Under the pieces are notes generated by a model, which was not told the origin of the DNA, made no database searches, and worked only from the letters and a program-made list of their open reading frames with translations. From Bacillota bacterium (lineage in GTDB: Bacteria; Bacillota; Clostridia; Lachnospirales; Lachnospiraceae), in contig JAQXYZ010000044.1 in assembly GCA_029226935.1 (NCBI GenBank), positions 1 through 55,231 of the forward strand: a stretch of DNA of 55,231 nucleotides. Reading direction: 5' to 3'. Position 1 is the first letter of the stretch. Every line of letters begins with the position of its first letter. Below, in pieces: positions 39,077 to 55,231 of the stretch. The translations under genes were made by a program, and so were the position numbers.

Positions 39077-39442
39077 ATGATTGAGGAAGAAAAAAGAGTA
39101 GAACAGTTAATATCGGAATTTATGCTGGATATGGGTGTGCCTGCACATTTGAAGGGGTATCGTTATGTGCGTACGGCAGTTCTGATGGCGAAGTCAGATA
39201 TGAAAGTGGTGGGAAGTGTTACAAAGCTTCTTTACCCTGAGATTGCAAAGCTGTATAATACTACTGACGGCAAGGTGGAGAGGGCAATCCGCAATGCAAT
39301 TGAAATTTCCTGGGAAAGGGGAAACAAAAAGACTTTTGAGGAGATGTTCGGTTATTGCGCGGAAAGCGGACAGGGCCGTCCTACCAACAGCGAATATATT
39401 GCTGCCATTGCCGACGCAGTGAGGCTGAAAGCGGCAAAATAA
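39077..39442 (+). CDS. Free-standing Spo0A-type C-terminal DNA-binding domain protein
   Basis: 121 residues that are almost entirely the Spo0A C-terminal effector domain: MGVPAHLKGYRYVRTAVLMA, VTKLLYPEIAKLYNTTDGKV with ERAIRNAIEISWERG, and the end RPTNSEYIAAIADAVRLK. The helix that reads 0A boxes is present, but there is no receiver domain and hence no phosphorylation switch. The gene starts at ATG 39077 with GGGGAG about nine nt upstream. It could be a constitutive or competing regulator of Spo0A targets, or control the neighbouring glycan genes. It is not the cell's main Spo0A. Confidence 0.85.
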   Translation: MIEEEKRVEQLISEFMLDMGVPAHLKGYRYVRTAVLMAKSDMKVVGSVTKLLYPEIAKLYNTTDGKVERAIRNAIEISWERGNKKTFEEMFGYCAESGQGRPTNSEYIAAIADAVRLKAAK

Positions 39443-39530: not shown

Positions 39531-40724
39531 ATGGATAAGCCTGCAATTTGCGGAGGAACCCCGATACGGGAAACGAAAATATTTTATGGACATCAGTACA
39601 TAGATGAGGATGATATACAGGCAGTAGTGGATGTGCTCAGAAGCGATTATCTTACCTGTGGACCCAAAATCGGCGAACTGGAGGACAAATTGTGTCAGAT
39701 AACCGGAGCAAAGTATGCGGTGGTGTGCAGTAATGGAACGGCAGCGCTGCATCTTGCATGTATGGCAGCAGGTGTGATGGCAGGGGATGAGGTAATCACA
39801 ACGCCTATTACCTTTGCGGCATCTGCAAACTGTGCTCTTTACTGCGGCGCAAAGCCGGTGTTTGCTGATATCAATGAAGAAACCTACAATATTGATCCTG
39901 CCAATGTTGAAGCCCTGACCAATGAAAAGACTAGAGCAGTGGTGGCAGTGGATTATACCGGACAGTCTGTAGAACTTGACAGATTGCTGGAGCATTGCCG
40001 TAAACATCACTTGGTGCTGATCGAGGATGGCGCACATGTAATCGGAACCAGATACAAGGGAAAATGTAACGGATCTATCGCAGATATGACTACTTTAAGC
40101 TTTCATCCGGTAAAGACTGTTACCGGTGGTGAGGGCGGTGCAGTACTGACCAACAGTGAGGAATATTACAAAAAGCTGATTTTATATCGTGCCCATGGAA
40201 TTACCAGAGCGCCTGAGCAGATGGAGCATGAGCCGGATGGACCATGGTATTATGAGCAGGTGGCGCTTGGAATGAATTACCGAATGACCGATATGCAGGC
40301 GGCACTGCTCATCAGCCAGCTCAATAAGCTTCCTGCATTTTCAAAACGCAGAAAGGAAATTGTAAAGGCGTATAATGAGGCATTTTCAAAGCTGCCCCAG
40401 ATTATTGTACAGAAGGAAATACCTGAATCAGATACCACAAGGCATTTATATATTCTCAGATTGAACAGAGAACATCTGAAAATAGACCGGAAACAGTTTT
40501 TTGACGCTTTGGCGGCAGAAAATATCTGCTGCAATGTGCATTATATACCGACTTACTATTTCCCATATTATGAAAAGCTTGGCTATCAGCGAGGACTTTG
40601 CCCAAAGGCGGAGAAGCTTTATGAAGAAATTATCAGTTTGCCCCTTTATTATGCAATGACTGATCAGGATGTGCAGGATGTCATCGGTGCAGTTACGAAG
40701 ATTGCAGAGTATTATAGTATTTAA
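39531..40724 (+). CDS. pseC: PseC-like nucleotide-sugar 4-aminotransferase (DegT family)
   Basis: 397-residue PLP enzyme that puts an amino group on C4 of a UDP-4-keto-6-deoxy sugar. Start MDKPAICGGTPIRETKIFYG, ATG 39531 after GGAGG. The SNGTAALHLA loop, EDGAH (Asp about 166 to the PLP ring nitrogen) and SFHPVKTVTGGEGG with the PLP Lys at 195 are intact. The closest type by eye is PseC (UDP-4-amino-4,6-dideoxy-N-acetyl-altrosamine transaminase). It opens a three-gene rightward operon; the PseG, PseI and PseF partners are encoded on the opposite strand just beyond. The sugar's identity is inferred from those partners. Confidence 0.85.
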   Translation: MDKPAICGGTPIRETKIFYGHQYIDEDDIQAVVDVLRSDYLTCGPKIGELEDKLCQITGAKYAVVCSNGTAALHLACMAAGVMAGDEVITTPITFAASANCALYCGAKPVFADINEETYNIDPANVEALTNEKTRAVVAVDYTGQSVELDRLLEHCRKHHLVLIEDGAHVIGTRYKGKCNGSIADMTTLSFHPVKTVTGGEGGAVLTNSEEYYKKLILYRAHGITRAPEQMEHEPDGPWYYEQVALGMNYRMTDMQAALLISQLNKLPAFSKRRKEIVKAYNEAFSKLPQIIVQKEIPESDTTRHLYILRLNREHLKIDRKQFFDALAAENICCNVHYIPTYYFPYYEKLGYQRGLCPKAEKLYEEIISLPLYYAMTDQDVQDVIGAVTKIAEYYSI

Positions 40725-40741
40725 AGGTTGGGAAGAAACAA

Positions 40742-41770
40742 ATGAAGTTGAGTGTGATAGTACCTGTTTATAATATGGCGGCAGGAGACAAGCTGACATG
40801 GTGCTTGGATTCACTGATTAACCAGACGATTTCAGATTATGAGATCATTGCGGTAGACGACTGCTCTACAGATAATTCACTGGAGATACTGCGTGATTAT
40901 GAGAAGCAATATCCTGACAAATTTAAGGTGATTGCCTCTTTGGTCAATCAAAAGCAGGGGGGTGCCAAAAATTTAGGGCTTGAGCAGGCGAAGGGGGAGT
41001 GGATTGGCTTTATTGACAGCGATGACTGGATTACCCCGGATTTTTATGAGAAGCTGCTGACCCGGGCAGAGGAAACCGGGGCAGACATGGTGGGCTGTGA
41101 CTATCATCTGACTCATGAGCACAGTATGGAGATCGGTCAGATTGTACACAATAATCGTCCATCTCAGGCAGGTGTTCTTACCAAAGAAAAATACCGGTCT
41201 CTGATTTTGGATAGTGGAAGTCTGGTGGTCAAGATTTATAAAAGGCATATTATCTATGATTTTCCCAATCGCTTTCCGGAGCATATTTTCTATGAGGATA
41301 ATGCAATCAGTAATTCATGGATGCTGCGGGCTAAGCATTTTGAGTATTTGGAGGAGCCTCTTTACTATTATTACCAGCATGATACCTCCACTGTTCATAC
41401 GATTACCCAGAAGCGCTGTGAAGACCGCATGGAGGCAGCACGGGTAATGGTGAGGGAAGCCAGAGAGTTTGGTTATCTGGAGGAATATTATCCTGAGATA
41501 GAGAGCAGCTTTACCACATTGTTTTATGTGAATACCCTGTTTTCCTATATGGCAGGAGTGAAGAAGAAAAAATATGCCTTTGTCAGGGCAATGGGAAGGG
41601 AAATGCGGGAAACTTTTCCCGGGTTTATGGATAATCCTTACTATCAGGAGAGGGTTCATGCAGAAGAGAGGAAGCTGATCGGAATGCATATGAAGTCTAC
41701 CCTGTATTTTATGCTGTACTATAAGCTTTTATGGGGATACAGAAATTTCAGAAAAAAATTAAAGGGTTAA
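40742..41770 (+). CDS. Family 2 glycosyltransferase
   Basis: 342 residues, soluble GT-A fold: VIVPVYNMAAG, VDDCSTDNSLEILRDYE, GGAKNLGLEQAKGEWIGF with the metal-binding IDSDDW, and FYEDNAISNSWMLR. The C-terminal third is helical without clear membrane segments. It resembles transferases of capsule or flagellin glycan loci. It starts 17 bp after the aminotransferase and ends ten bp before the ATP-grasp gene. Donor and acceptor are unknown. Confidence 0.88.
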   Translation: MKLSVIVPVYNMAAGDKLTWCLDSLINQTISDYEIIAVDDCSTDNSLEILRDYEKQYPDKFKVIASLVNQKQGGAKNLGLEQAKGEWIGFIDSDDWITPDFYEKLLTRAEETGADMVGCDYHLTHEHSMEIGQIVHNNRPSQAGVLTKEKYRSLILDSGSLVVKIYKRHIIYDFPNRFPEHIFYEDNAISNSWMLRAKHFEYLEEPLYYYYQHDTSTVHTITQKRCEDRMEAARVMVREAREFGYLEEYYPEIESSFTTLFYVNTLFSYMAGVKKKKYAFVRAMGREMRETFPGFMDNPYYQERVHAEERKLIGMHMKSTLYFMLYYKLLWGYRNFRKKLKG

Positions 41771-41780
41771 ATTTATAAAG

Positions 41781-42953
41781 ATGAGAGCAGTGATTATCGG
41801 TGCCAGCAGTGAGGCACTTCACACAATTGAAATGGCACATAAGCATGGTCTTACGGTGATTGCACTGGATGGGAATCCGGACGCACCGGGACTTAAGGCG
41901 GCAGATGCAGGATTTGTGGTCGATATTTCCGATGAAGCAGCCACGATAGAGAGGGTCAGACGGGAAAAGGCTGACTTTGTACTTACAGTACCGATCGGAA
42001 GGTATCTGACTACGATTGGCGCAGTAAACGATGCGCTTGGGCTGCCGGGGATCAGCAGGGAAATGGCATCTCTTTGTACAGATAAGCTTCTCTTTCATCA
42101 GAGACTGTGGGAAAAGGGATTGAGGAACTGTCATTGTTATCTGGTGGAGCAGGGGAAAATTACAGACAGCAGTCCTGTGATAACGTTTCCTGCGATTTTA
42201 AAGCCAAGGTTTGGGTCCGGCAGCAGGGGAATCCACTTTCTTAACAGCGAGCGGGAGATGGAAGGCGCGCTGAAAGAGACTGGCGATGAAGCCTATGTGC
42301 TGGAGGAGTGCATTACAGGGGAAGAGTATGGCGTGGATGGGGCAGTGACGAAGGACGGCTTTCAGATGATCCTGCTTCGCAAAAAGGAAAACACACCGCC
42401 GCCAGCCAGACAGGCGGTGGGTTATATTTCTGTGCAGAACACGGATCCGTTCTGGCAGAAGGTGTACACCTACATGGTGCAGATTACAACACATCTGAAG
42501 CTGAAGGATTGTCTGCTGCATGCAGATATCATTAAGGGGGATGATGGCCCATTTGTGATAGAGCTTTCTGCCAGACCTTCCGGGCACAATCTCCATAATC
42601 TTTTTACTCCACTATGTACAGGGGTAGATATGGCAGAGGAGTATATTAAGTACCGGATGGGGCTTCCTTATGGCTTTGAGCCCTCCGAGACCAGACCTAT
42701 GATGATTCACTATTTTGATATGCAGGGAACGGCGCTTCATGTGCCATCCGAAGAGGAAGTCAGACGGATTGTCCGCACAAGGCTTGCAGCATGGGAATGT
42801 CATATAAAGAAGGGCGAAGAATTAAAGCCCGTGTCGGATGGTCATTCGGTGATGGGACGAGGGTATTTTATTCTGGAGGGCGAGGATGAAAAAGTTTTAA
42901 GAGAGGATGTCCTTAAAGTAAAGAAACTTTTTTTGGATACAGCCGGTGTCTGA
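41781..42953 (+). CDS. ATP-grasp ligase in the nonulosonic acid locus
   Basis: 390 residues. A Rossmann-like N-terminal domain (MRAVIIGASSEALHTIEMA, VIALDGNPDAPGL) is followed by the ATP-grasp fold: FPAILKPRFGSGSRGIHFL, YVLEECITGEEYGVDGAV and the Mg-ligand segment LLHADIIKGDDGPFVIELSARPSGH. A C-terminal domain (about 290-390) completes it. This architecture is that of carboxylate-amine ligases similar to carbamoyl-phosphate synthase/PurK relatives, which join a carboxylic acid to an amine through an acyl phosphate. Its placement beside sugar amination and NulO genes suggests it acylates an amino sugar with an amino acid or other acid. The substrate is inferred only. Confidence 0.85.
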   Translation: MRAVIIGASSEALHTIEMAHKHGLTVIALDGNPDAPGLKAADAGFVVDISDEAATIERVRREKADFVLTVPIGRYLTTIGAVNDALGLPGISREMASLCTDKLLFHQRLWEKGLRNCHCYLVEQGKITDSSPVITFPAILKPRFGSGSRGIHFLNSEREMEGALKETGDEAYVLEECITGEEYGVDGAVTKDGFQMILLRKKENTPPPARQAVGYISVQNTDPFWQKVYTYMVQITTHLKLKDCLLHADIIKGDDGPFVIELSARPSGHNLHNLFTPLCTGVDMAEEYIKYRMGLPYGFEPSETRPMMIHYFDMQGTALHVPSEEEVRRIVRTRLAAWECHIKKGEELKPVSDGHSVMGRGYFILEGEDEKVLREDVLKVKKLFLDTAGV

Positions 42954-44054
42954 TTATAATTTCATCATGGCATCTGCAATCCGCAGTGCACCCATTCCGT
43001 CAATTAATCTGTGCATGGTATCATGTGCAGATTTTCTTTTTGAATAGGAGGAAGCGGAGGCTGTAAGCATTGATTTCAGGAAGAGAGTCACATGCTCCAT
43101 AACAGTCTCATAATCAGTGCAAAGATTTCCGGCGCAGGGAATCGCACCTGTTTCTTCAAAAGCCCTGGCAGAAGTTAGCTGATTATCCGCCATAGTAAAG
43201 CTGATGGTGGGAACACCGAGGGCACAGAGCTCATAAAGAGTGGTACCGGAAGCGGAAACTGCCAGATCACATTTTGCCATCAGAGATGCCATGTCTGATA
43301 CATTTTCATGGAGCTGTAAAAAGGGGTATTCACGGGAAAGTGCGTAGAGCGCTTCCCGGTCCGTGTTTAGTCTGCCCACTACAATGTGGAAGGTCACAGT
43401 TTCTATAGAAGGTACTGCAACTTTGCAGAGCTTTTTGGACAGTTCCAGACAAAAATGATAGGGATCACTTCCACCGGAGGTAATAAGCACGTCAGAAACA
43501 GTATCCCTGACTTTGATTTCTCTGCCTTGAAACTGGCTTCGAAGGGGGGCATAGGACGCCCCTAAAAGACGCTTTCCTGCCCTTTGATAAAACGCTTCTA
43601 AGGAAGAAAGCTGATCATCAGGAATTACATCATAGTTGATCAGCAGGTCTACAGGGTAATCAAAGAGCTGCAAATCATCTATATAAGCGGTCTTTACAAG
43701 CGGGTTTACGGAATGAACGGCAGACAGATATTCCTCTGTGATGTAGTAAGAATCCAGAAGAAAAATGATGCTTTTTTTGGCTTGTAAAGCCTCATCTGCA
43801 GCGTGGGCAAGCAGAGCGCAAAGCTCAGGCAGTTCCTGTTCTAAGTGCTTGTAGCAGGCGGTTTTCAGACAGGTAATGGGAAAATCGGTAAGGGCGGACA
43901 AAAGGTTCACGCTCTCCTGATCAGAGACAAGAAAATGTACTTTCATGCCCTTCTGCACACAAATTTGGGCAACAGAAACACAGCGTACCAGATGCCCGGA
44001 CGCAATCCTGCTGTTTCCATCTGTGCGAATATAAATTAATCGATCAGCTCCCAC
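42954..44054 (-). CDS. pseG: PseG-like UDP-sugar hydrolase
   Basis: 366 residues, GT-B-like fold. The N-terminus YIRTDGNSRIASGHLVRC is the PseG signature; later LLDSYYITEEYL, YIDDLQLFDYPVDLLINYD, VLITSGGSDPYH and AVSASGTTLYELCALGVP are typical. PseG removes UDP from the 2,4-diamino-sugar to give the free sugar used by PseI. Start is GTG 44054, overlapping pseI by 19 bp. It ends with no gap against the ATP-grasp gene coming from the other side. Confidence 0.87.
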   Translation of the reverse strand: MGADRLIYIRTDGNSRIASGHLVRCVSVAQICVQKGMKVHFLVSDQESVNLLSALTDFPITCLKTACYKHLEQELPELCALLAHAADEALQAKKSIIFLLDSYYITEEYLSAVHSVNPLVKTAYIDDLQLFDYPVDLLINYDVIPDDQLSSLEAFYQRAGKRLLGASYAPLRSQFQGREIKVRDTVSDVLITSGGSDPYHFCLELSKKLCKVAVPSIETVTFHIVVGRLNTDREALYALSREYPFLQLHENVSDMASLMAKCDLAVSASGTTLYELCALGVPTISFTMADNQLTSARAFEETGAIPCAGNLCTDYETVMEHVTLFLKSMLTASASSYSKRKSAHDTMHRLIDGMGALRIADAMMKL

Positions 44055-45088
44055 TTTAATGGTGTTCCTTTCTTTAAGAAGGTTTTTGCCTTCCTGCCTA
44101 AGATTTCCTCATAGTACATAGTGTGGAGTCCGTTGCCCGGACGGATGGACCGGATATTTTCGGCTGTAAGCTCTTCCCCGGCGGCAATATCCTTTACAAC
44201 AAACAGGGAGCGTGAACCCTGATGCTCCAGCTTCTGAGTGTCGGTAAGTCGATATTCGCTGCTCCCCAGAGCTTTTTCCATAATGCGGATATCCCTGACC
44301 ATTTGGGCAAATTCCTCCGGCTCCATGGAAAAGGCACTGTCAGGACCGCCGTCTGAGCGGCGCAGGGTAAAGTGCTTTTCTACCATTTTTACGCCCAGGG
44401 CAATAGAACCGGCAGATACGATGGTTCCCATTGTATGATCGGAAATTCCGATCAGGCAGTCATAGGTCTTTGCAAGGGTAGGAATAACGTTCAGATTTAC
44501 GGCTTCATAGGGAGTAGGATAGGAGGATACACATTTTAAAAGAATCACATCCTCATTTCCCTCTTCCCGGCAGACTGCAAGTGCACGCTCGATATCTTCT
44601 GGATAAGCAATCCCGGTGGCAAAGATAATGGGTTTATGGAGCCTTGCAATTTTACGGATCAGAGGTATGTCGTTGATTTCGTAGGATGCAATCTTGTATG
44701 CAGGGACATTCATCTGTTCCAGAAAATCTACTGAGCTGAAATCAAAGGGCGAGGAAAAGCATTCCATACCAAGCTTATTCGCCTCCTCCATCAGCTTCGG
44801 CTGCCAATCCCAGGGAGTATAAGCCTCCTGATATAATTGATAGAGAGTGGTGCCATCCCAGATGGTTCCCTCATTAATTTGAAAGCAAGGGTCATCACAG
44901 TCGATGGTAATGGTGTCTGCCGTATAGGTCTGCAGCTTGACAGCGTCTGCACCTGCTTCCTTTGCGGCATGCAGAATTTCTATGGCCCGGTGATAATCCT
45001 GATTGTGATTGGCAGAAAGCTCTGCCACAATAAAAACAGGGGAATCTGCGCTGATGACGCGCTTTCCAATTTTGATCTGTTTATTCAT
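44036..45088 (-). CDS. pseI: PseI-like nonulosonic acid synthase
   Basis: 350 residues of the NeuB family, condensing a diamino-hexose with phosphoenolpyruvate to a nine-carbon sialic-acid-like sugar. Seen: FIVAELSANHNQDYHRAIEI, KLQTYTADTITID, FSSPFDFSSVDFLE, KIASYEINDIPLI, LLKCVSSYPTPYEAVNLN, GISDHTMGTIVS, VEKHFTLRRSDGGPDSAFS and the C-terminal antifreeze-like (SAF) domain from about 290. These variants match pseudaminic acid synthase more than NeuB or LegI. The start is ATG 45088; the upstream extension lacks a ribosome site. Confidence 0.9.
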   Translation of the reverse strand: MNKQIKIGKRVISADSPVFIVAELSANHNQDYHRAIEILHAAKEAGADAVKLQTYTADTITIDCDDPCFQINEGTIWDGTTLYQLYQEAYTPWDWQPKLMEEANKLGMECFSSPFDFSSVDFLEQMNVPAYKIASYEINDIPLIRKIARLHKPIIFATGIAYPEDIERALAVCREEGNEDVILLKCVSSYPTPYEAVNLNVIPTLAKTYDCLIGISDHTMGTIVSAGSIALGVKMVEKHFTLRRSDGGPDSAFSMEPEEFAQMVRDIRIMEKALGSSEYRLTDTQKLEHQGSRSLFVVKDIAAGEELTAENIRSIRPGNGLHTMYYEEILGRKAKTFLKKGTPLKWELID

Positions 45089-45111
45089 ATATTGGTTTCC
45101 TATCTTGTTTC

Positions 45112-46317
45112 TTATTTGGTCTCGGTGTAATTTTTCTGCAAATATTCGTCGTTTGTCCATGCTTCCCTTGCCGTAAACAGGGAGCCATCTGTATGCTCCA
45201 CATAGACAGCAGGAAGATAGTTGATAAACAATGGATTCAGACACATTGTGTAGCCTCCGGCAGTATCATAAATGATTCTGTCTCCGGGAGCAAGCGCCAC
45301 ATCCTCTTTGATTTCAAACAATCGGTCATATTCCATGCAGGTAGCCCCACAGATCCATTGAGAATGCTCCCTTTTTCGGTTTGAGATATGGGAAGCATAT
45401 TCCAAATGATGTGGATAAACATGTCTGGTGACCAGAGGATTTAAGTTGGTACGGCTTCCGTCTGTTACCACGAATTTCCTGCCCCGGATATCCTTGATAT
45501 CAATGACAGAGGTCTCAAAGGTTGTTGCCCGGGAAATCAGTGAAACGCCGGGTTCTGCAATCAGAAAGGTTCTCTGTGGATCAAAGTATACGGAAAGCTC
45601 CCGGCAGATTTCCTTAAAATAATCCCGATAATCAGGCTTATCATCTCTTCCGCCGAAGTAGCCGCCACCCATGTCCACATAGTCCAAAGACAGGTGGTAT
45701 TCCTGTGCAATTTTGACCGCCATTTTTGCCAATGCCCCAAATACCTGAACGGTTCTCGACTGGGTGGAGGAGTGCAGATGCAGCCCTGCCACACATACAT
45801 TGGGAAGTGCATTCATCCGCCTGATGGCAGCTTGAAGCACACCATTTTCATAACAGTAGCCGAACCGTCCGCCTTCTTCGGAGGCAAGAGTTTCTTCCGG
45901 GCAAAGAGTGGCAATATCACAGTTCACGCGAAGTCCAATGCGGAACCGCCTGTTGGGATAGAGAGCGCTTAACTCCTCCATCCAGTCCAGTTCATAATTG
46001 GAATCCATGTTAATCAGACCGCCGCCTAAAAGAATGTCTTCAAATACCTTCCGATCCTTGATGGGACCGTTATATATAATCTCTTTTTCCGAAAATCCAA
46101 GCCGGGTAACCAAATCATATTCTGTTTTGGATACGACCTCCGCACAGAAGTCCTGCTCCTTCAAATAGGTAATCAACCAAGGGAGGGAATTGGTCTTGAT
46201 GGAATATCCAATCCGGTAATTTCCCCAGTTTTCCTGAAGGGCACCCTTTAAGAGGGTAATGTCATATAGTAAATCCTTTTCCCGGATACGGAAAAAGGGT
46301 GTCTGTAATTGTTTCAT
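45112..46317 (-). CDS. PLP-dependent decarboxylase, alanine-racemase fold (group IV type)
   Basis: 401 residues. The PLP Lys is in YSIKTNSLPWL; other sites are LHLHSSTQSRT, YVDMGGGYFGG and FLIAEPGVSL. The C-terminal beta domain has ICGATCMEYDRL (Cys and Asp of the second active-site half) and DTAGGYTMCLNPLFI. These belong to the ornithine/diaminopimelate decarboxylase family and look functional. The ATG at 46317 follows GGAG. It is an unusual gene to sit between pseI and pseF; it might supply an amine or decarboxylated amino acid for glycan decoration. The substrate is unknown. Confidence 0.85.
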   Translation of the reverse strand: MKQLQTPFFRIREKDLLYDITLLKGALQENWGNYRIGYSIKTNSLPWLITYLKEQDFCAEVVSKTEYDLVTRLGFSEKEIIYNGPIKDRKVFEDILLGGGLINMDSNYELDWMEELSALYPNRRFRIGLRVNCDIATLCPEETLASEEGGRFGYCYENGVLQAAIRRMNALPNVCVAGLHLHSSTQSRTVQVFGALAKMAVKIAQEYHLSLDYVDMGGGYFGGRDDKPDYRDYFKEICRELSVYFDPQRTFLIAEPGVSLISRATTFETSVIDIKDIRGRKFVVTDGSRTNLNPLVTRHVYPHHLEYASHISNRKREHSQWICGATCMEYDRLFEIKEDVALAPGDRIIYDTAGGYTMCLNPLFINYLPAVYVEHTDGSLFTAREAWTNDEYLQKNYTETK

Positions 46318-46355
46318 ATTCTTCTCCAATCCACCGCATTTTGCGGATGGTTCCT

Positions 46356-47045
46356 TTATTTGTGAAGCATCCGGTATTTTAGTTCTGCCAGCTCCCAGTC
46401 CTCCATCGTGTCGATATCCTGTACTTCAAGTTCAGAAAGGACCAGAGGAACGAGACGCTCTACATCTGTGGTTCCTGCAGCCAGAAAAGCATCTGTACGA
46501 CAGGCATAAAATTGACCACAGTCATGGTAAATTTTGGGCAAATCCTGACTGCGGGCAGTGGCATATTCCGGGAACTGCCTTTCTACAAATCCCATGCTGT
46601 TTATTACCAGTCCCCGTTGGGGAGGATAAGAAAAAGGAACTACAGGCATAACAGAATCTGCTTCCTTTAGCAGCTCCATGGCACTGCGCAGCCGCTCTTT
46701 GCTTAAAAACGGGGCGGTGGGATAGATACAGCAGAAAGCATCAAAATTCCGTCCCATCTGCTGATAAGCTTTCAAAACCTCCATAATTACATCGTCCGTG
46801 GTAGCATGATCACCGGAAGACTCCGGGGAACGGAAAAAAGGAACCTTGGCCCCGGCTGTTTTGGCAATCTGTGCAATTTCCTCGTCATCCGTGGACACCA
46901 TGACCTCCTCAAATGCGCCGGAAGACAGTGCGGCCTCGATGGAATAACAGAGGATGGGTTTTCCGCAGAAGGATTTGATATTTTTGCGGGGAATACGCTT
47001 ACTGCCTCCCCGGGCAGTGATGATAGCCAGATGATTTGTGCTCAT
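46356..47045 (-). CDS. pseF: PseF-like CMP-nonulosonic acid cytidylyltransferase
   Basis: 229 residues activating the nine-carbon sugar with CTP. The CTP-binding start AIITARGGSKRIPRKNIKSF, MVSTDDEEIAQIA, IYPTAPFLSKERL, and the product-site PKIYHDCGQFYACR are typical of PseF. ATG 47045 follows AGGAGAG. It is the first gene of the leftward operon pseF-decarboxylase-pseI-pseG, behind its own promoter. Confidence 0.9.
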   Translation of the reverse strand: MSTNHLAIITARGGSKRIPRKNIKSFCGKPILCYSIEAALSSGAFEEVMVSTDDEEIAQIAKTAGAKVPFFRSPESSGDHATTDDVIMEVLKAYQQMGRNFDAFCCIYPTAPFLSKERLRSAMELLKEADSVMPVVPFSYPPQRGLVINSMGFVERQFPEYATARSQDLPKIYHDCGQFYACRTDAFLAAGTTDVERLVPLVLSELEVQDIDTMEDWELAELKYRMLHK

Positions 47046-47087
47046 TGCTCTCTCCTGAACAGTACCTTGATTTTTATGATACTTCTG

Positions 47088-47115
47088 ATTATACACCATT
47101 ATTCATTGCATTCAA
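47088..47115 (-). promoter_or_regulatory. Promoter of the leftward pse operon
   Basis: On the minus strand TTGAAT (47115-47110) and TATAAT (47093-47088) are 16 bp apart, about 43 bp before pseF. Confidence 0.68.
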
Positions 47116-47135
47116 ACAAAAATCTATGATAAACT
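47106..47135 (+). promoter_or_regulatory. Candidate promoter of the sialyltransferase-like gene
   Basis: TTGCAT (47106-47111) and TAAACT (47130-47135) are 18 bp apart. The -35 region overlaps that of the divergent pse promoter, so the two may compete or be co-regulated. Confidence 0.45.
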
Positions 47136-47197
47136 GTGCGTAGCAAACGCTTTTATGAACGTGAAAGGCAGAACTGCCGAAAGGAGCATGGTAAGCT

Positions 47198-48307
47198 TTG
47201 AAGAACGAAAACAATACCAGGAAACGGATTTATATTTGTCATACCTTTTATCATGCATATATCGCTTGTCTGAAGGAACTGAATCTTCCTGTAAGCGGGG
47301 AGGGGGCGGTCAGGGGACAGGCAACACTGCTTTTAAGTACCATGTCAAATGATTTTGGTACGCTGAAAGAGCGGGCGGAAAATTCCGGTCTTTTTGAGCA
47401 GGTGATTCCCTATGACGAAAAAGAGGAGAGTTTTTTTCCGGAGCTTTCCAAATATCACAAGGACAGGGGAAATATTCTGCTGAATATGCTTGCCCGGATG
47501 AAATATACAAAGATGATGGGAAAACTGCAGGCACCCTTTGTACCGGTCAATCTGAAGGAGTATGGGGATATTTATGTGTTCTGCGACTCTGATCCCATTG
47601 GATATTACCTGAGCACGCATAAGATTTATTACCATGCGCTGGAGGATGGACTTGACTGCATTCGCTATTATGATACGGCACGCTATGACAACCGGGGACA
47701 TTTCAAACTTAAGGCTTGGATGGCAGCAAAGAATTTAATTTTTATCCAGAACGGTTATTCTAAATATTGCCTGGACATGGAGGTAAATGACATTTCGGTT
47801 TTGGAGTATCCCTGTCCGAAGTATATTGAATGTCCCAGAAAAGCCCTGACTGAAAGTCTGGGGGAGGAAGAAAAGAAAATACTGGTTTCGATTTTTATAG
47901 AGAATATGGACGAACTGGAGAGGATGCTTGCCGCAGGGAAAGGACATGAACACAAGGTGCTGGTGCTCTCAGAACCTCTGTGTGATTTGGAGACCAGAAA
48001 ACGGATTTTCAGAGACATCATTGCAGAATATGGGGAGGTAGACGGAGAAAAGGCACAGATACTGATTAAGCCCCATCCGAGAGATGTGCTTGACTATCGT
48101 AAGCTGTTTCCCGAGCATATTGTTCTGGATGGGAAATTTCCAATGGAAATTCTGAATTATGTAAAAGGGCTTGACTTCGACCGGGTGGTAACTGTCTTTA
48201 CGGTTCCGGAGGCAATTAAGTTTGCCAGAGAGAAGGTCTTTCTGGGGGAGGATTTTATGGATCGGTATGAGGCACCGGAAATACACCGACAGAATGAGCA
48301 GATTTGA
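47198..48307 (+). CDS. Sialyltransferase-like glycosyltransferase (GT52-type)
   Basis: 369 residues, no membrane helix. It carries the two motifs that mark bacterial sialyltransferases: EDG (149-151, in HALEDGLD) and KPHP (291-294, in LIKPHPRDVLDY). FPMEIL (314-319) and a Thr-rich VVTVFTVPEAI near the end correspond to the remaining CMP-binding elements of GT52. With a CMP-NulO pathway encoded next door, it is the likely transferase for that sugar. The start is taken as TTG 47198, 12 nt after AAGGAG; the ATG at 47188 is in another frame. Family assignment is by motif only. Confidence 0.75.
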   Translation: MKNENNTRKRIYICHTFYHAYIACLKELNLPVSGEGAVRGQATLLLSTMSNDFGTLKERAENSGLFEQVIPYDEKEESFFPELSKYHKDRGNILLNMLARMKYTKMMGKLQAPFVPVNLKEYGDIYVFCDSDPIGYYLSTHKIYYHALEDGLDCIRYYDTARYDNRGHFKLKAWMAAKNLIFIQNGYSKYCLDMEVNDISVLEYPCPKYIECPRKALTESLGEEEKKILVSIFIENMDELERMLAAGKGHEHKVLVLSEPLCDLETRKRIFRDIIAEYGEVDGEKAQILIKPHPRDVLDYRKLFPEHIVLDGKFPMEILNYVKGLDFDRVVTVFTVPEAIKFAREKVFLGEDFMDRYEAPEIHRQNEQI

Positions 48308-48308
48308 T

Positions 48309-48337
48309 TTGTATCTGTAAATATGGTAAAATATAAT
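48309..48337 (+). promoter_or_regulatory. Candidate promoter of the glycan export operon
   Basis: TTGTAT (48309-48314) and TATAAT (48332-48337) are 17 bp apart, about 82 bp before the ABC exporter gene. Confidence 0.55.
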
Positions 48338-48419
48338 GATTTACTAATCTGCTGATTGATGGGAACCATGAAAGGAAGCAGTTGGTAATTACGAATATAG
48401 AAAGATTTGGAAAAGAGTC

Positions 48420-50177
48420 ATGAAGAAAATACTGAAAAAGCTGATGGTACTGCTTGACAAGCGGCAGAAGAGAGTGATGGTGCTGCTGATTATTTTAATG
48501 CTGATAGGCGCTGTTCTGGAAACTGCGGGAGTTTCCATGGTTCTGCCTGTAATGAATGTGGTCATGGACGAAAACGCGGTGGAAAAGCATGGATATTTAC
48601 AGGTAATCTGCCGTATTCTGCGCATCGACAATGAGGATACCAGAAGTCTGATGATCTTTACGATGGTTGGGCTGATTGGTATTTTTGTGATTAAGAATAT
48701 TTTCCTGTTCTTCCAGCAGAAGGCACAGCTGAAGTTTGTCTATACCAATCAGTTTGCCACTTCCAGAAGAATGATGATCAACTTTATGGAGAGACCCTAT
48801 GAATACTATCTGAATGCGGATACTTCCGTGATTCAGAGGAGTATTACTTCCGATGTGAATAATATGTACGGATTGATTTTATCCCTGTTACAGCTGTTCA
48901 GCGAGGCGATTGTGTTTGTGTGTCTGGCGGTGGTAAGCCTCTTGGCAGATGTGTGGATGACCATTACGGTAACGGTGCTTTTGGTAGCGGTTCTTCTGAT
49001 TATCAAGTGCATTTTAAAGCCCATCATGAAAAAGGCGGGAGAGGATAATCAGGATTATTACAGCGGTCTTTACAAGTGGATTGATCAGTCGGTAATGGGA
49101 ATTAAGGAAATTAAAATTGCCAATAAAGAAAACTATTTTATCAATGAATATGCCAAGTGTGGTGCGGGCTATGTGGATGCAGTGCAGAGGTATAATCTGT
49201 TTAACGCAACTCCCAGACTGCTGATTGAAACCGTGGCGATTGCCGGAATGATCTTTTATATGATGATTAAGATTTTAGGCGGTACGGCAGTGACGGATAT
49301 CATGCCACAGGTAACGGCTCTGGCAGTGGCTGCCATGCGTTTGATTCCCTGTGCAAACAGGATTAATAACTATCTGACTTCCATATCTTACTTTGAACCC
49401 TTCTTTATGGGTGTTAGTGATAATCTTCAGGAAGAGATCAGGGATGAAAACATCAACTATGATGAAAAGGCATATCAGAAAAAAGTTGAAGTAGAAAAGT
49501 TAAAGATCAGTGACAAAATCGAACTTAAGGATATTGTTTACAAATATCCCAATACAGAGGTGTTAATTTTTGATCATGCCAATATGGAAATCCCGGTGGG
49601 ACGTTCCGTGGGAATTGTGGGAACCTCCGGTGCAGGTAAGACTACGGTGGTCGACATCTTACTGGGACTTTTGACACTGCAGAGCGGGCAGATTTTGGCA
49701 GACGGCGTGGAAGTCAGGGACCATTATCAGTCCTGGCTTAAAAATATCGGTTATATTCCACAGACCATCTTTATGATTGATTCCACCATCCGTAAAAATG
49801 TTGCGTTTGGATGTGCGGATGAGGATATTGATGATGAGAAGGTGTGGCGCGCACTGAAGGAAGCTCAGCTGGATGAATTTGTCAGAGGACTTCCGGAGGG
49901 ACTTGACACCAGCATCGGGGAAAGAGGAATCCGTATTTCCGGCGGACAGAGACAGCGTATTGGAATAGCAAGGGCATTGTTTGAAGATCCGGAGGTACTG
50001 GTGTTGGACGAAGCAACCTCTGCACTGGATAATGAAACGGAAGCGGCAATTATGGATTCCATTAACCGTCTCCATGGAAGGAAAACACTTATTATCATTG
50101 CCCACCGCCTTCAAACAATTGAAAAGTGTGATATGGTCTACCGTGTAGAGAATGGTAAGGTGGTAAGGGAAAGATAA
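48420..50177 (+). CDS. ABC transporter with fused membrane and ATPase domains (glycan flippase type)
   Basis: 585 residues. Six helices (about 20-310) precede an ATPase domain with GIVGTSGAGKTTVVDILLG (Walker A, about 397-415), IGYIPQTIFMIDSTIRKNVA, RISGGQRQRIGIARAL, VLVLDEATSALDNETE and IIAHRLQTI. It resembles PglK/MsbA-type half transporters that flip lipid-linked oligosaccharides. In this locus it most likely moves the undecaprenyl-linked, NulO-containing glycan outward. The ribosome site is weak (GGAAAAGAG). Confidence 0.88.
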   Translation: MKKILKKLMVLLDKRQKRVMVLLIILMLIGAVLETAGVSMVLPVMNVVMDENAVEKHGYLQVICRILRIDNEDTRSLMIFTMVGLIGIFVIKNIFLFFQQKAQLKFVYTNQFATSRRMMINFMERPYEYYLNADTSVIQRSITSDVNNMYGLILSLLQLFSEAIVFVCLAVVSLLADVWMTITVTVLLVAVLLIIKCILKPIMKKAGEDNQDYYSGLYKWIDQSVMGIKEIKIANKENYFINEYAKCGAGYVDAVQRYNLFNATPRLLIETVAIAGMIFYMMIKILGGTAVTDIMPQVTALAVAAMRLIPCANRINNYLTSISYFEPFFMGVSDNLQEEIRDENINYDEKAYQKKVEVEKLKISDKIELKDIVYKYPNTEVLIFDHANMEIPVGRSVGIVGTSGAGKTTVVDILLGLLTLQSGQILADGVEVRDHYQSWLKNIGYIPQTIFMIDSTIRKNVAFGCADEDIDDEKVWRALKEAQLDEFVRGLPEGLDTSIGERGIRISGGQRQRIGIARALFEDPEVLVLDEATSALDNETEAAIMDSINRLHGRKTLIIIAHRLQTIEKCDMVYRVENGKVVRER

Positions 50178-50201: not shown

Positions 50202-51338
50202 ATGGCAGATCAAAAGCGCATGGCAAATTATGAATTATTGAGAATTCTGGCGATGGTCATGGTCGTTATTTTACATTTTCTGTCTCAGTCTGACCGTTTG
50301 GTCAGTCTGGATCATCCTCTTGAAGGTGTAAGGATTTTGGGGACGCTGATGGAGTTTTTCTGCCTTGCGGCGGTAAATGTGTATGTGTTCCTCAGCGGTT
50401 ATTTTGGAGTAAAAAGCTCCTTTAAGCCCGGCAAGGCGGTATCATTGCTCTGCCAGATATGGTTTTATGCACTATTGATTCCCATAGCGCTTGCTGCATC
50501 AGGGATGCCAATCGTGGCGATAAAGGAAGGAAAACTGAACCTATATGGGCTGGTACAGTATCTTTTCCCGATAGAAACAGAGCATTACTGGTTTGCCACC
50601 TCCTATCTGATGCTGTATCTTTTAAGTCCTGTACTAAATACTGCAGTTAGAAATATGTCAAAAAAGCAGATGCAGATTACTTTGGGCGGCTTGCTGCTTC
50701 TGTTTTGCGTAATCAAAAGTATCAGCCCCATCTCTTTTGTGACAGACAGGTACGGATATGATCTTTCATGGTTCATTTGCGTCTATCTGGTGGCTGCTTA
50801 TTTTGGAAAATACGGTTCCTGTTTTTTTGAGAAAAATGGATGGATGACTTATATTCTGAGCTGTCTGGCGGGATTTGGCATTCACATGGTAATGTGGTTT
50901 GTGTGCCGGCGGTGGGACGGCTTTGCTTATTATTTTACGGTGCCCTTTCATTATAACTTTCTTTTCTGCCTGACAGCTGCAATAGGGTTGTTTTATGGCT
51001 TCTCGAAAATACAGATAAAAGAGGGAGTTTGGGCACGGCTGATAAGGAAAATGGGCGGGCTTAGCTTTGGAATTTATCTGCTTCATGAACATATCGATTT
51101 AAGAAATCTGTGGTATGGATGGATCAGCGGCGCAGTAAATCCCGGTAAGGCACAGGGGCTTGGAGCTTTTGTATGGGAATTGGTCTGTAGTGTAGTGATG
51201 ATTTTTGCGGCAGGTATTTTGATAGATTGGATGAGAAGCAAGCTGTTTTCTGTTGTCTCCTGCAGGCTGGGGCGTAGGAAGCCGGGACGCAAGCTTAAGG
51301 AACTGGCCGAGGCTTTTGAAACAGTAGATTTAAAGTAG
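50202..51338 (+). CDS. Membrane O-acyltransferase, acyltransferase family 3
   Basis: 378 residues with about ten membrane helices. It begins with the family signature NYELLRILAMVMVVILHFLSQ (catalytic-type His and Arg), then VNVYVFLSGYFGVKS and, near the end, LSFGIYLLHEHIDLR. Members use acyl donors to O-acetylate surface sugars. The start at 50202 is chosen over the internal ATG at 50220. It lies 24 bp after the exporter, with an expected role in O-acetylating the exported glycan. Confidence 0.87.
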   Translation: MADQKRMANYELLRILAMVMVVILHFLSQSDRLVSLDHPLEGVRILGTLMEFFCLAAVNVYVFLSGYFGVKSSFKPGKAVSLLCQIWFYALLIPIALAASGMPIVAIKEGKLNLYGLVQYLFPIETEHYWFATSYLMLYLLSPVLNTAVRNMSKKQMQITLGGLLLLFCVIKSISPISFVTDRYGYDLSWFICVYLVAAYFGKYGSCFFEKNGWMTYILSCLAGFGIHMVMWFVCRRWDGFAYYFTVPFHYNFLFCLTAAIGLFYGFSKIQIKEGVWARLIRKMGGLSFGIYLLHEHIDLRNLWYGWISGAVNPGKAQGLGAFVWELVCSVVMIFAAGILIDWMRSKLFSVVSCRLGRRKPGRKLKELAEAFETVDLK

Positions 51339-53212: not shown

Positions 53213-54343
53213 ATGATTCGATTCAATGAGCCCCCCTACACAGGGAAAGAGATGAAAAATATACAAAAAGCTATAGAAAACATGCATATCTGTGGGGATG
53301 GAGAGTTTACGAAAAAGTGTAGTGAATATCTGGAAAGAACCACAGGTACGGCCAAGTGCCTGCTGACCACCTCCTGTACGCATGCACTGGAGATGGCAGC
53401 CCTTCTGTGTGATTTGAAGGAGGGGGATGAGGTAATCCTGCCTTCCTACACCTTCGTGTCCACCGCAGATGCCTTTGTCTTAAGAGGTGCAAAGGCTGTG
53501 TTCGTAGACATTCGGCCGGATACCATGAATATCGATGAGACACTGATTGAGGATGCCATTACGGAGAAAACCAAAGCAATCTTTGTAGTGCACTATGCAG
53601 GTGTGGCATGCGAGATGGATACCATTATGGAAATTGCGGACAGGCATCATCTGATGGTAGTGGAGGACGCGGCACAGGCGATTATGTGTACCTACAAGGG
53701 AAAGCCACTTGGTACGATTGGAGATTTTGGCTGCTATAGCTTTCATGAAACGAAAAATTTCAGTATGGGAGAGGGCGGCGCTCTTCTGATCCGTAATCCT
53801 GAGTATATTGAAAATGCAGAAATCTTAAGAGAAAAAGGGACGGACAGAAGCAAATATTTCAGAGGGCAGGTAGACAAGTACCGCTGGATGAATTTGGGCT
53901 CTTCCTATCTTCCAAGCGATATTAACGCTGCTTACCTCTATACACAGTTGGAAATGGCAGAGCAGATCAATGAGGTACGTCTCGCCAGATGGAAGCAGTA
54001 CTATGAACTGCTTTCACCGCTTAAGGAAGCCGGGAAAATTGAACTGCCAATCATCCCGGAGGGGTGTGTTCACAATGGACACATGTTTTACATCAAAACC
54101 AAGGATATGGAAGAACGCACCAGCCTGATCGATTTTATGAAGGCAAACGATGTGCTGACTGTATTTCATTATGTTCCTCTGCACTCTGCACCCGCAGGAA
54201 TCAAATTCGGAAGATTTCATGGGGAAGATAAGTACACGACCAGAGAAAGTGAACGTTTACTGCGCCTTCCCATGTTTTATCAGCTGAAGGAAGAGGAAGT
54301 AGATTATATTGCAGGAAAGGTAAAGGAGTTCTATGGAGCTTAA
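53213..54343 (+). CDS. wecE: dTDP-4-amino-4,6-dideoxygalactose transaminase, WecE/RffA type
   Basis: 376 residues, the same length as E. coli WecE. It has MIRFNEPPYTGKEMKNIQKA, TTSCTHALEMAALL, LPSYTFVSTADAFVLRGAK, VVEDAAQAIM and SFHETKNFSMGEGGAL with the PLP Lys at 181. It aminates dTDP-4-keto-6-deoxyglucose to dTDP-4-amino-4,6-dideoxygalactose, the precursor of Fuc4NAc-type sugars. It is thus a second amino-sugar branch in the locus, distinct from the PseC-like enzyme. GAAGGAAAGG precedes ATG 53213. Its last 11 bp overlap the next gene. Confidence 0.9.
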   Translation: MIRFNEPPYTGKEMKNIQKAIENMHICGDGEFTKKCSEYLERTTGTAKCLLTTSCTHALEMAALLCDLKEGDEVILPSYTFVSTADAFVLRGAKAVFVDIRPDTMNIDETLIEDAITEKTKAIFVVHYAGVACEMDTIMEIADRHHLMVVEDAAQAIMCTYKGKPLGTIGDFGCYSFHETKNFSMGEGGALLIRNPEYIENAEILREKGTDRSKYFRGQVDKYRWMNLGSSYLPSDINAAYLYTQLEMAEQINEVRLARWKQYYELLSPLKEAGKIELPIIPEGCVHNGHMFYIKTKDMEERTSLIDFMKANDVLTVFHYVPLHSAPAGIKFGRFHGEDKYTTRESERLLRLPMFYQLKEEEVDYIAGKVKEFYGA

Positions 54344-55231
54344 AGCCAGATGCCAAAAGTGGGAAAACTGGATAATTGCCGGCATGGTGCTGCTTTTTTT
54401 GGGAGTTTGGGCAGGAGTCAGATTCGATTATTACTATGACCTGAATGATGATGTATTGATGAAGGATATTCTTGCAGGAAGCTACACCGGGACGCCGGAA
54501 GGGCATAATATCCAGATGCTCTGGCCAATCAGTGCATTGTTGAGTCTCTTTTACCGCATTGCAAGACCACTTCCATGGTATGGTCTGTTTCTCTGCTTTT
54601 GCCATTTTGGCTGCTTTTTTCTGATTTTGTACAGGAGTCTTAAGCTGAACCGGACATGGCAGGGGAAGGTAATGGCAGCGCTTACGGAGGGACTTCTCTT
54701 TAGCGGTTTGTTTCTGGAACATTTAATTTACGCACAGTACACAGTGACCTGTACCCTGCTGGGTGCAACAGCTGCGTTTCTGTTTTATACTACAGACATC
54801 ACTCTTTCTGCCAAAGATTTTATCAGGGAAAATATTCCATCGGTGCTTCTGGTGTCAGTGGCATACCTGATCCGTTCGGAGATGCTGCTTTTGGTGCTTC
54901 CCATGATCTGCGTGGCGGGTGTTGCCAAGTGGGGATGTGAAAAGAAGATTTTTACAAGGGAAAACAGTGTGAAATATTTGACAGTCATTGGACTGATTCT
55001 TGGAGGAATCTTACTTGGACAGCTGACACACCGGATTGCATACGGATCTGACGAATGGCGCCGATTTACGGAATTTTTTGATAACAGGACAGAGCTTTAT
55101 GATTTTCAGTCACCTCCTGATTATGAAGACCATCGGGCATTCTATGACAGTATCGGGCTGAGTGAAAGTGAAAAAGTTCTGCTCAACAACTATAACTTTG
55201 GCATGGATGAAGAGATTGATGAGACCATGAT
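54333..55231 (+). CDS. Polytopic membrane protein, truncated by the window end
   Basis: Open from ATG 54333 (AAGGAG four nt upstream) to the last base with no stop: 299 complete codons. It starts MELKARCQKWENWIIAGMVL, with a first helix at about 14-31, then an external loop YYYDLNDDVLMKDILAGSYT and at least six further helices. The acidic loop after helix 1 recalls the protein encoded at 51405, so both may be GT-C-like glycan enzymes. It overlaps the WecE-like gene by 11 bp, so it is translated with it. I do not recognise the family. Confidence 0.8.
   Translation, partial: MELKARCQKWENWIIAGMVLLFLGVWAGVRFDYYYDLNDDVLMKDILAGSYTGTPEGHNIQMLWPISALLSLFYRIARPLPWYGLFLCFCHFGCFFLILYRSLKLNRTWQGKVMAALTEGLLFSGLFLEHLIYAQYTVTCTLLGATAAFLFYTTDITLSAKDFIRENIPSVLLVSVAYLIRSEMLLLVLPMICVAGVAKWGCEKKIFTRENSVKYLTVIGLILGGILLGQLTHRIAYGSDEWRRFTEFFDNRTELYDFQSPPDYEDHRAFYDSIGLSESEKVLLNNYNFGMDEEIDETM

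What the first reader, a model, noticed from the sequence alone, without database searches (positions are those of the whole stretch)
39531..47045. Pseudaminic-type nonulosonic acid locus with an ATP-grasp ligase and a decarboxylase
PseC-, PseG-, PseI- and PseF-like enzymes are all present in two facing operons, but no PseH-type N-acetyltransferase and no PseB dehydratase is encoded in the window. In their company are an ATP-grasp ligase and a PLP decarboxylase, which the standard Pse and Leg routes do not use. Inference: the amine made by the PseC-like enzyme is acylated by the ATP-grasp ligase with an unusual acid instead of acetyl, giving an uncharacterised nine-carbon sugar. Some clostridial flagellar sugars are known to carry amino-acid-like acyl groups, so the chemistry is plausible.
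Basis: partly seen in the sequence, partly recalled or inferred. Interest (0 to 1): 0.75.

Follow-up and report, generated by a model that had tools for sequence, protein, structure and literature searches.

The report
Sialic-like sugar with ligase and decarboxylase
Some gut bacteria of the Lachnospiraceae carry a conserved gene set for a sialic-acid-like surface sugar in which the usual acetyl-adding enzyme seems to be replaced by a ligase and a decarboxylase, which predicts an unusual amine-bearing version of the sugar.

Summary
The genes are real: PseC, PseG, PseI and PseF pass NCBIfam cut-offs, with a PF13535 ATP-grasp (ATPg) and an alanine-racemase-fold PLP decarboxylase (DEC) among them. 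In 80 named loci found by DEC, PseI is present in 76, PseF 76, PseG 74, ATPg 66; PseF and DEC are one ORF in 21. PseB exists elsewhere in the genome. 'No PseH' is weak evidence: the contig ends where relatives carry a PseH-family GNAT, found in 31 of 31 relatives searched. That GNAT groups with WecE-linked ones, not with the PseI-adjacent clade. Beside PseI, ATP-grasp and GNAT rarely coexist (19, 19, both 1, of 56; p = 0.001), but phylogenetic pairing is not significant. DEC keeps its catalytic residues and lacks the diaminopimelate-specificity ones, resembling N-citrylornithine decarboxylase. Best reading: ATPg joins a side-chain carboxylate of glutamate or aspartate to the sugar amine and DEC removes the alpha-carboxylate, as in butirosin, giving an amine-bearing nonulosonic acid. 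The chemistry is inferred.

The parts
39531..40724 (+). PseC-type UDP-4-amino-sugar transaminase
   Evidence: TIGR03588 466 bits over cut-off 423.5; PseC present in 33 of 34 genomes searched (G000, G206, G207 and the 31; none in G279)
40742..41770 (+). GT2 glycosyltransferase that travels with PseC and ATPg
   Evidence: PF00535; in 56 of 80 DEC loci
41781..42953 (+). ATP-grasp carboxylate-amine ligase (ATPg), proposed N-acylating enzyme
   Evidence: PF13535 52 bits; in 66 of 80 DEC loci; nearest solved chains 4dim, L-amino acid ligases, CPS, BacD; K141, E175, D249, E261, R265 invariant in 11 and in 34 sequences
42954..44054 (-). PseG-type UDP-sugar hydrolase
   Evidence: TIGR03590 172 bits over 153.6; 74 of 80 loci
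44036..45088 (-). PseI-type nonulosonic acid synthase
   Evidence: TIGR03586 484 bits over 340; start at 45088; 76 of 80 loci
45112..46317 (-). alanine-racemase-fold PLP decarboxylase (DEC), proposed to decarboxylate the side-chain-linked amino acid
   Evidence: PF02784, PF00278; best solved relative N-citrylornithine decarboxylase 7kh2 179 bits; catalytic residues 31 of 31, diaminopimelate-specificity residues lost 31 of 31; 21 of 80 loci fuse it to PseF
46356..47045 (-). PseF-type CMP-nonulosonate cytidylyltransferase
   Evidence: TIGR03584 285 bits over 206; 76 of 80 loci
47198..48307 (+). GT52-family glycosyltransferase, likely user of the CMP-sugar
   Evidence: PF07922 53 bits; 66 of 80 loci; use of the CMP-sugar is inferred from recalled knowledge of the family
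48420..50177 (+). PglK-like lipid-linked glycan ABC flippase
   Evidence: NF050066 362 bits, below its cut-off of 1000; 61 of 80 loci
50202..51338 (+). membrane acyltransferase (Acyl_transf_3)
   Evidence: PF01757; 57 of 80 loci
53213..54343 (+). WecE-type transaminase (TDP-Fuc4N), start of the neighbouring sub-cluster that is cut off by the contig end
   Evidence: TIGR02379 628 bits over 434.9; 29 of 80 loci; contig ends at 55231
54333..55231 (+). first half of a ~590-aa protein, broken by the contig end; in five relatives a PseH-family GNAT follows within one or two genes

Best explanation
A variant nonulosonic-acid (pseudaminic-type) pathway. Shown by sequence: PseB (other contig), PseC, PseG, PseI and PseF are all encoded, and ATPg and DEC are frequent companions of them. 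Inferred: UDP-GlcNAc is converted by PseB and PseC to the UDP-4-amino sugar; ATPg activates the side-chain carboxylate of an amino acid (glutamate most likely, else aspartate) and joins it to the sugar amine; DEC then removes the alpha-carboxylate with PLP, leaving a 4-aminobutyryl (or beta-alanyl) amide; PseG, PseI and PseF make the CMP-nonulosonic acid; the GT52 enzyme transfers it to a lipid-linked glycan flipped by the PglK-like ABC protein. The order of ATPg/DEC relative to PseG/PseI/PseF is not fixed by the data (the PseF-DEC fusion would also allow a late decarboxylation). The product would carry a free amine next to its own carboxylate, a zwitterionic sialic-like sugar.
For: Conserved linkage over 80 named loci and a 21-of-80 PseF-DEC fusion. 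ATP-grasp or GNAT, seldom both, within 5 kb of PseI: 18 ATPg only, 18 GNAT only, 1 both, 19 neither, Fisher p = 0.001; the overlap stays at one genome (G188) in all 36 threshold combinations, p 0.0001-0.023 when weak GNATs count. Other acyl-type enzymes also stand near PseI (MaoC-hexapeptide protein in G184, formyltransferase in G208 together with a weak GNAT, PylC-like ATP-grasp in G236). DEC is not LysA: the genome has a better match (282 vs 125 bits). DEC keeps K45, H184, R134, G221-223, E259, C331 in 31 of 31, but has N297 where lysA proteins have Arg and M332 after the catalytic Cys, where FigC also has Met (PMC7857480 section 8 read). Its nearest solved relatives are N-citrylornithine decarboxylase (179 bits), plant DAPDC (124, 118) and BtrK (108); PMC7857480 groups FigC, SbnH, AcsE, MccE and BtrK, which act on citryl-, nucleotide- or carrier-linked amino acids, in one clade that also holds DAPDC and D-ornithine decarboxylase (passages). 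Two more distant DEC paralogues (G213, G094; 46 and 40% identity) each abut a PylC-like ATP-grasp. Precedents: C. botulinum Leg5GluNMe7Ac carries an N-methyl-glutam-4-yl group on a nonulosonate amine (passage in PMC5207245); BtrK makes GABA from carrier-bound glutamate (PMC7857480), and BtrA, B, I, J and K serve the transfer of an aminobutyryl group to an amine of butirosin (passages of PMC11405602).
Against: A PseH-family GNAT is present in 31 of 31 relatives searched, 8 over the PseH cut-off; by coordinates 29 of 31 lie inside or within 7 kb of the fetched DEC locus (contig identity inferred from matching coordinates). Within WecE-positive genomes the GNAT associates with PseI (24 of 36 with PseI against 4 of 44 without, p = 7e-8), so it might acetylate the Pse precursor. 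Ten weak GNATs near PseI (48-65 bits) score better with the WecE-type profile than with the PseI-type one. The ATPg/GNAT exclusion is not significant on phylogenetically independent pairs (median p 0.5), and at a GNAT threshold of 80 bits it is not significant either (p 0.07-0.66). G188 has both enzymes beside PseI. No substrate of ATPg or DEC was tested, and no carrier-protein gene fits in the cluster, unlike butirosin. Glutamate rather than aspartate is a guess from precedent. The structure prediction of DEC had not finished at the last poll and that of ATPg was never accepted.
Confidence: 0.42

Rival explanations
1. The WecE-linked GNAT just beyond the contig end is the working PseH: ordinary acetylation gives a Pse5Ac7Ac-type core, and ATPg with DEC add a separate group elsewhere on the same glycan.
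For: PseH-family GNAT in 31 of 31 DEC genomes searched, 8 over the cut-off; association with PseI inside WecE-positive genomes, 24/36 against 4/44, p = 7e-8; ten weak PseI-side GNATs resemble the WecE type more than the PseI type.
Against: 30 of 30 such GNATs put in the tree fall with WecE-adjacent ones and outside the clade of the 6 PseI-adjacent GNATs (99/95 support); one representative is closer to spermidine acetyltransferases (67 bits) than to solved PseH (21 bits); three genomes with a WecE-side GNAT have another acyl-type enzyme near PseI (G184, G208, G236), though G208 also has a weak GNAT there; G089 has WecE and the GNAT but no PseI at E 1e-100.
Confidence: 0.25
2. Decarboxylation comes first: DEC makes a free omega-amino acid (for example GABA or beta-alanine) and ATPg then ligates it to the sugar amine through its only carboxylate.
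For: Same gene content and same final product; ATPg occurs without an adjacent DEC, next to a class III aminotransferase, in L041, L043, L044, which could equally supply a free omega-amino acid.
Against: DEC lacks the small-substrate recognition residues of DAPDC and resembles decarboxylases of conjugated amino acids.
Confidence: 0.15
3. DEC makes a free amine from a basic amino acid and ATPg couples that amine to a sugar carboxylate (of the nonulosonic acid or a uronic acid).
For: ATP-grasp ligases join carboxylates to amines, and which partner is the sugar is not told by the sequence; family-level only.
Against: The acidic residue that binds the side-chain amine of basic amino acids is Met in 31 of 31; ATP-grasp relatives also sit within 3 kb of the amine-making WecE in 6 genomes.
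Confidence: 0.1
4. DEC is simply the cell's diaminopimelate decarboxylase placed here by chance.
For: The lysA model hits it at 125.6 bits.
Against: Far below the lysA cut-off (297.9); a better lysA match exists in G000 and in 14 of 15 genomes searched, G000 included (in G037 only DEC was found); 76 of 80 loci have PseI within 10 kb.
Confidence: 0.03

Closest known systems
Pseudaminic acid pathway PseB-PseC-PseH-PseG-PseI-PseF
   Same: PseB (other contig), PseC, PseG, PseI, PseF all over NCBIfam cut-offs
   Different: no PseI-linked PseH found; ATP-grasp ligase and PLP decarboxylase inserted
Butirosin side-chain route (BtrI, BtrJ, BtrK)
   Same: an AR-fold decarboxylase that trims linked glutamate to an aminobutyryl group; BtrK is among DEC's nearest solved relatives. 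That BtrJ is an ATP-grasp ligase is recalled, not looked up
   Different: no carrier-protein gene fits between the genes of the cluster; the acceptor here would be a sugar amine
N-citrylornithine decarboxylase FigC/FslC (7kh2)
   Same: nearest solved relative of DEC, 179 bits; Met after the catalytic Cys
   Different: siderophore context; different specificity helix; the PLP-phosphate Arg of FigC is Val or Ile in DEC
Shewanella oneidensis sfmABCDE flagellin modification (PMC3765264)
   Same: NeuB-type synthase operon with an ATP-grasp_4 gene (sfmE); nonulosonate with one acetyl (passages)
   Different: other partner genes (TPP enzyme, methyltransferase); the word decarboxylase does not occur in the main text; the added 264 Da group is suggested to hold no nitrogen
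C. difficile type B flagellin glycan (PMC5207245, PMC5207246)
   Same: PF13535 ATP-grasp gene in a locus whose glycan has Fuc3N acylated by taurinyl-Ala-Gly (passages)
   Different: not a nonulosonic acid; the word decarboxylase does not occur in the main text of PMC5207246
C. botulinum Leg5GluNMe7Ac
   Same: a glutamate derivative (N-methyl-glutam-4-yl, which I read as gamma-linked) on a nonulosonate amine (passage in PMC5207245)
   Different: legionaminic type, C5 position, N-methylated, by its name not decarboxylated

Membership tests
Standard pseudaminic acid pathway | PseB dehydratase | tested here: met
   G000:C78:2135-3100, 545 bits over 408
Standard pseudaminic acid pathway | PseC, PseG, PseI, PseF over family cut-offs | tested here: met
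Standard pseudaminic acid pathway | PseH N-acetyltransferase | tested here: inconclusive
   best hit in the assembly 30.9 bits; contig breaks where relatives have a PseH-family GNAT; that GNAT is of the WecE-linked type
Standard pseudaminic acid pathway | product Pse5Ac7Ac | not testable with these tools
   needs mass spectrometry
Diaminopimelate decarboxylase (LysA) | lysA equivalog score | tested here: not met
   125.6 bits, cut-off 297.9; a separate lysA-like gene at 282 bits is in the genome, itself just under the cut-off
Diaminopimelate decarboxylase (LysA) | specificity residues: Arg for the distal carboxylate, acidic residue after the catalytic Cys | tested here: not met
   N297 and M332 in 31 of 31; three lysA proteins, the own one included, keep R and E. 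That this Arg is R343 of PMC7857480 is my mapping by alignment
AR-fold PLP decarboxylases | catalytic Lys, His, Gly loop, Glu, Cys | tested here: met
   31 of 31, roles from PMC7857480
PF13535 ATP-grasp carboxylate-amine ligases | Pfam gathering score and conserved ATP-grasp residues | tested here: met
   52 bits over 27; invariant K141, E175, D249, E261, R265; the role of each residue is recalled from the fold
Butirosin-type carrier-linked route | ligase and decarboxylase encoded together | tested here: met
   66 of 80 loci within 10 kb
Butirosin-type carrier-linked route | dedicated acyl carrier protein | tested here: not met
   gaps between the genes from 39531 to 48420 are at most 152 bases (coordinates); elsewhere in the genome not tested

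The most novel reading that the evidence does not exclude
A ligate-then-decarboxylate route makes a nonulosonic acid with a 4-aminobutyryl (or beta-alanyl) amide in place of acetyl: a zwitterionic sialic-like sugar on the surface of many gut and rumen Lachnospiraceae, and a general rule that the acyl slot of bacterial nonulosonate pathways is swapped between GNATs and ATP-grasp amino-acid ligases.
Probability: 0.33. Interest if true: 0.77.

Novelty: new variant of a known kind. Interest (0 to 1): 0.6.

Why it matters
Nonulosonic acids are recognised by host lectins and enzymes partly through their N-acyl groups (general knowledge, not looked up here). A gut-commensal version with a free amine would change charge and recognition, and the pathway supplies a ready pair of enzymes (ligase, decarboxylase) with a precise mass prediction. 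If true, it also means that loci called pseudaminic acid from PseB, C, G, I and F alone can be given the wrong product.

Tried and rejected
Absence of PseB: rejected. Absence of PseH as proof: rejected after finding the contig break and the GNAT in relatives. Flagellar destination: not adopted; the locus carries a GT52 enzyme and a PglK-like flippase; flagellar genes were not searched for. DEC as LysA: rejected. Claim that ATP-grasp and GNAT exclude each other: kept only as suggestive, because the phylogenetic pair test had too few pairs and was not significant and a strict GNAT threshold removes significance. The first GNAT tree was wrong, 25 of its 60 rows holding stops because they were read on the wrong strand; replaced. 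That tree holds 60 GNATs: one from each of 30 of the 31 genomes, and 30 of the 48 places (only those had loci). Two PseI-adjacent GNATs (G135:C8, G173) are not in it; both score better with the PseI-type profile. For one search I used 36 places out of the 39 rows (second pieces of split hits in G041, G137 and G213 dropped).

Literature: 'pseudaminic acid' with 'ATP-grasp' gave 3 papers, passages of two read; Leg/flagellin/botulinum/glutam 6; 'nonulosonic acid' with Lachnospiraceae 8 (listing only); 'pseudaminic' with '4-aminobutyr' none; others (20 of 36 listed; 20 of 164 listed) were read as listings, apart from passages of PMC13317340 and PMC11339370. led to PMC7857480 (passages and section 8), PMC11405602 and PMC8503589 (passages). 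I did not see the ATP-grasp plus decarboxylase module in any of these; the lists were capped and subscription journals are mostly not held. Iyer et al. 2009 on amidoligases was not held.

Structure prediction: DEC job accepted but not finished at the last poll; ATPg job never accepted. No fold search was run.
Full report
What is there. The window holds two facing operons at 39531-47045. On the plus strand: PseC, a GT2 glycosyltransferase and an ATP-grasp protein (ATPg). On the minus strand: PseF, a PLP decarboxylase (DEC), PseI and PseG. PseC, PseG, PseI and PseF each pass their NCBIfam cut-offs. ATPg matches PF13535 and DEC matches PF02784/PF00278 over their gathering scores. A GT52-family glycosyltransferase, a PglK-like ABC flippase and a membrane acyltransferase follow.

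Is the company of ATPg and DEC more than chance? One scan of the genome collection (one genome for each of 84,980 species) with a DEC profile found 143 relatives; the best 80 were returned and all 80 were examined. Most titles name Lachnospiraceae, Butyrivibrio, Eisenbergiella, Parablautia or Lacrimispora; some say only Clostridium sp., Clostridia, Eubacteriales, Firmicutes or bacterium. Within 10 kb of DEC, PseI is found in 76 of 80, PseF 76, PseG 74, ATPg 66, GT52 66, flippase 61, acyltransferase 57, GT2 56, PseC 29, WecE 29, PseB 11. A PseH-type query (from L042) matched none, and a WecE-side GNAT lay within the fetched flank in 4. Some loci are cut by contig ends; in one checked case with full flanks (L105) ATPg sits with PseC and the GT2 on another contig. 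In 21 of 80 loci, mainly Butyrivibrio, PseF and DEC are one open reading frame. Several genomes are the same records as loci (equal contig lengths), so they are not independent additions.

PseB and PseH. PseB is encoded elsewhere in the same genome (C78, 545 bits), so its absence from the window means nothing. The only PseH-model hit in the assembly is 30.9 bits, RimI-like by its neighbours. However, the window ends at the end of its contig, inside a ~590-aa gene whose second half was not found in the assembly. In G037, G041, G100, G207 and G213 a PseH-family GNAT lies one or two genes after it; in G206 the GNAT lies elsewhere. Of 32 DEC genomes asked for, 31 were held, and 31 of 31 have such a GNAT at E 1e-12, 8 over the PseH cut-off. 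By coordinates, 29 of the 31 lie inside or within 7 kb of the fetched DEC locus, one (G268) 23 kb away and one (G279) elsewhere.

Is that GNAT the PseH of this pathway? In a tree of 60 GNATs, the 6 PseI-adjacent ones fall in one clade with one other (G164), and all 30 from DEC genomes fall outside it together with the 15 WecE-adjacent ones (support 99/95). One DEC-genome GNAT matches solved C. jejuni PseH at 21 bits and spermidine acetyltransferases at up to 67 bits; one PseI-adjacent GNAT matches PseH at 39 bits and spermidine acetyltransferases at up to 43. WecE makes TDP-Fuc4N, whose amine is a natural target. Against this: among 80 WecE-positive genomes the GNAT is found in 24 of 36 with PseI but 4 of 44 without, and ten weak GNATs near PseI score better with the WecE-type profile. 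I judge the WecE role more likely, not proven.

The acyl slot beside PseI. Of 250 family genomes (250 genera), 56 have PseI at E 1e-100 or better. I looked at the PseI neighbourhood in all 56: within 5 kb, ATP-grasp only in 18, GNAT only in 18, both in 1 (G188), neither in 19; Fisher p = 0.001. The overlap stays at one genome over 36 threshold combinations; p is 0.0001-0.023 when weak GNATs are counted and 0.07-0.66 when only GNATs of 80 bits or more are. On a PseI tree, independent pairs mostly point the same way but are too few (median p 0.5). The neighbourhood can hold still other acyl-type enzymes: a MaoC-hexapeptide protein (G184), a formyltransferase (G208, which also has a weak GNAT) and a PylC-like ATP-grasp (G236). 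ATP-grasp relatives also lie within 3 kb of WecE in 6 genomes (G013, G025, G154, G164, G195, G237), again beside a 4-amino-sugar transaminase. In L041, L043 and L044 a class III aminotransferase stands next to ATPg.

What DEC does. Its nearest solved relatives are N-citrylornithine decarboxylase (179 bits), plant diaminopimelate decarboxylases (124, 118) and BtrK (108). PMC7857480 (passages and section 8 read) says that an acidic residue next to the catalytic Cys binds the side-chain amine in ornithine, arginine and diaminopimelate decarboxylases and is Met in FigC, and that an Arg of the specificity helix binds the carboxylate in diaminopimelate decarboxylase. In DEC the aligned positions are M332 and N297 in 31 of 31 orthologues, while the catalytic Lys, His, Gly loop, Glu and Cys are kept; three lysA proteins, the genome's own included, have Glu and Arg there (that this Arg is the one of the paper is my mapping by alignment). 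DEC is thus an active-looking decarboxylase that seems no longer to recognise a free side-chain amine or a second amino-acid end. The same paper groups FigC, SbnH, AcsE, MccE and BtrK, which act on amino acids whose side chain is joined to citrate, a nucleotide or a carrier; the clade also holds DAPDC and D-ornithine decarboxylase. Two more distant DEC paralogues, in G213 and G094, each directly abut a PylC-like ATP-grasp gene inside other sugar loci, which supports a ligase-decarboxylase pair.

Proposed mechanism. ATPg joins a side-chain carboxylate to the sugar amine, and DEC then removes the free alpha-carboxylate. For DEC to act on the product, the ligated carboxylate cannot be the alpha one, which leaves glutamate or aspartate among the common amino acids. 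BtrK does the equivalent on carrier-bound glutamate (PMC7857480; that BtrJ is an ATP-grasp ligase is recalled). C. botulinum flagellin carries a nonulosonic acid with an N-methyl-glutam-4-yl group (passage in PMC5207245). The cluster has no room for a carrier-protein gene. All of this chemistry is inference.

Known and new. An ATP-grasp gene in a nonulosonate operon is already in print for Shewanella (sfmE, passages of PMC3765264), and one in an amino-sugar locus for C. difficile (PMC5207246). I did not see the conserved pairing with a decarboxylase, the PseF-DEC fusion or the predicted amine-bearing product in searches, whose lists were capped. I file it as a new variant of the known nonulosonate pathways.

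Noticed in passing
window 39077-39442 (+): A 121-aa protein that is only the Spo0A C-terminal DNA-binding domain, without a receiver domain, just upstream of the PseC operon.
   Followed up: no
L072 8993-11217; L071 2640-4855: More distant DEC paralogues directly abut a PylC-like ATP-grasp gene in other sugar loci: possibly a wider ligase-decarboxylase sugar-decoration module.
   Followed up: partly
L041 8252-9484, L043 1945-3156, L044 10603-11847: Class III aminotransferase next to ATPg in loci where no DEC was found.
   Followed up: partly
G013, G025, G154, G164, G195, G237: ATP-grasp relatives within 3 kb of WecE, suggesting amino-acyl decoration of Fuc4N too.
   Followed up: no
L042 9184-13085: G188 has ATP-grasp and a PseH-type GNAT side by side, followed by FabH-like and FabG-like genes, perhaps for an unusual acyl group.
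   Followed up: no
G000:C78:2135-3100 (L001): PseB stands apart from the other Pse genes, next to a dipeptidase-like gene (the name dipeptidase is recognised by eye, not searched).
   Followed up: no
L227, L228: PseG reading frames of 529 and 510 aa, with a weak GNAT-profile hit at 0-4 bases from PseI, looking like PseG-PseH fusions.
   Followed up: no
G250:C45:7209-8350: A lysA-like gene that appears in two pieces with a TGA inside.
   Followed up: no
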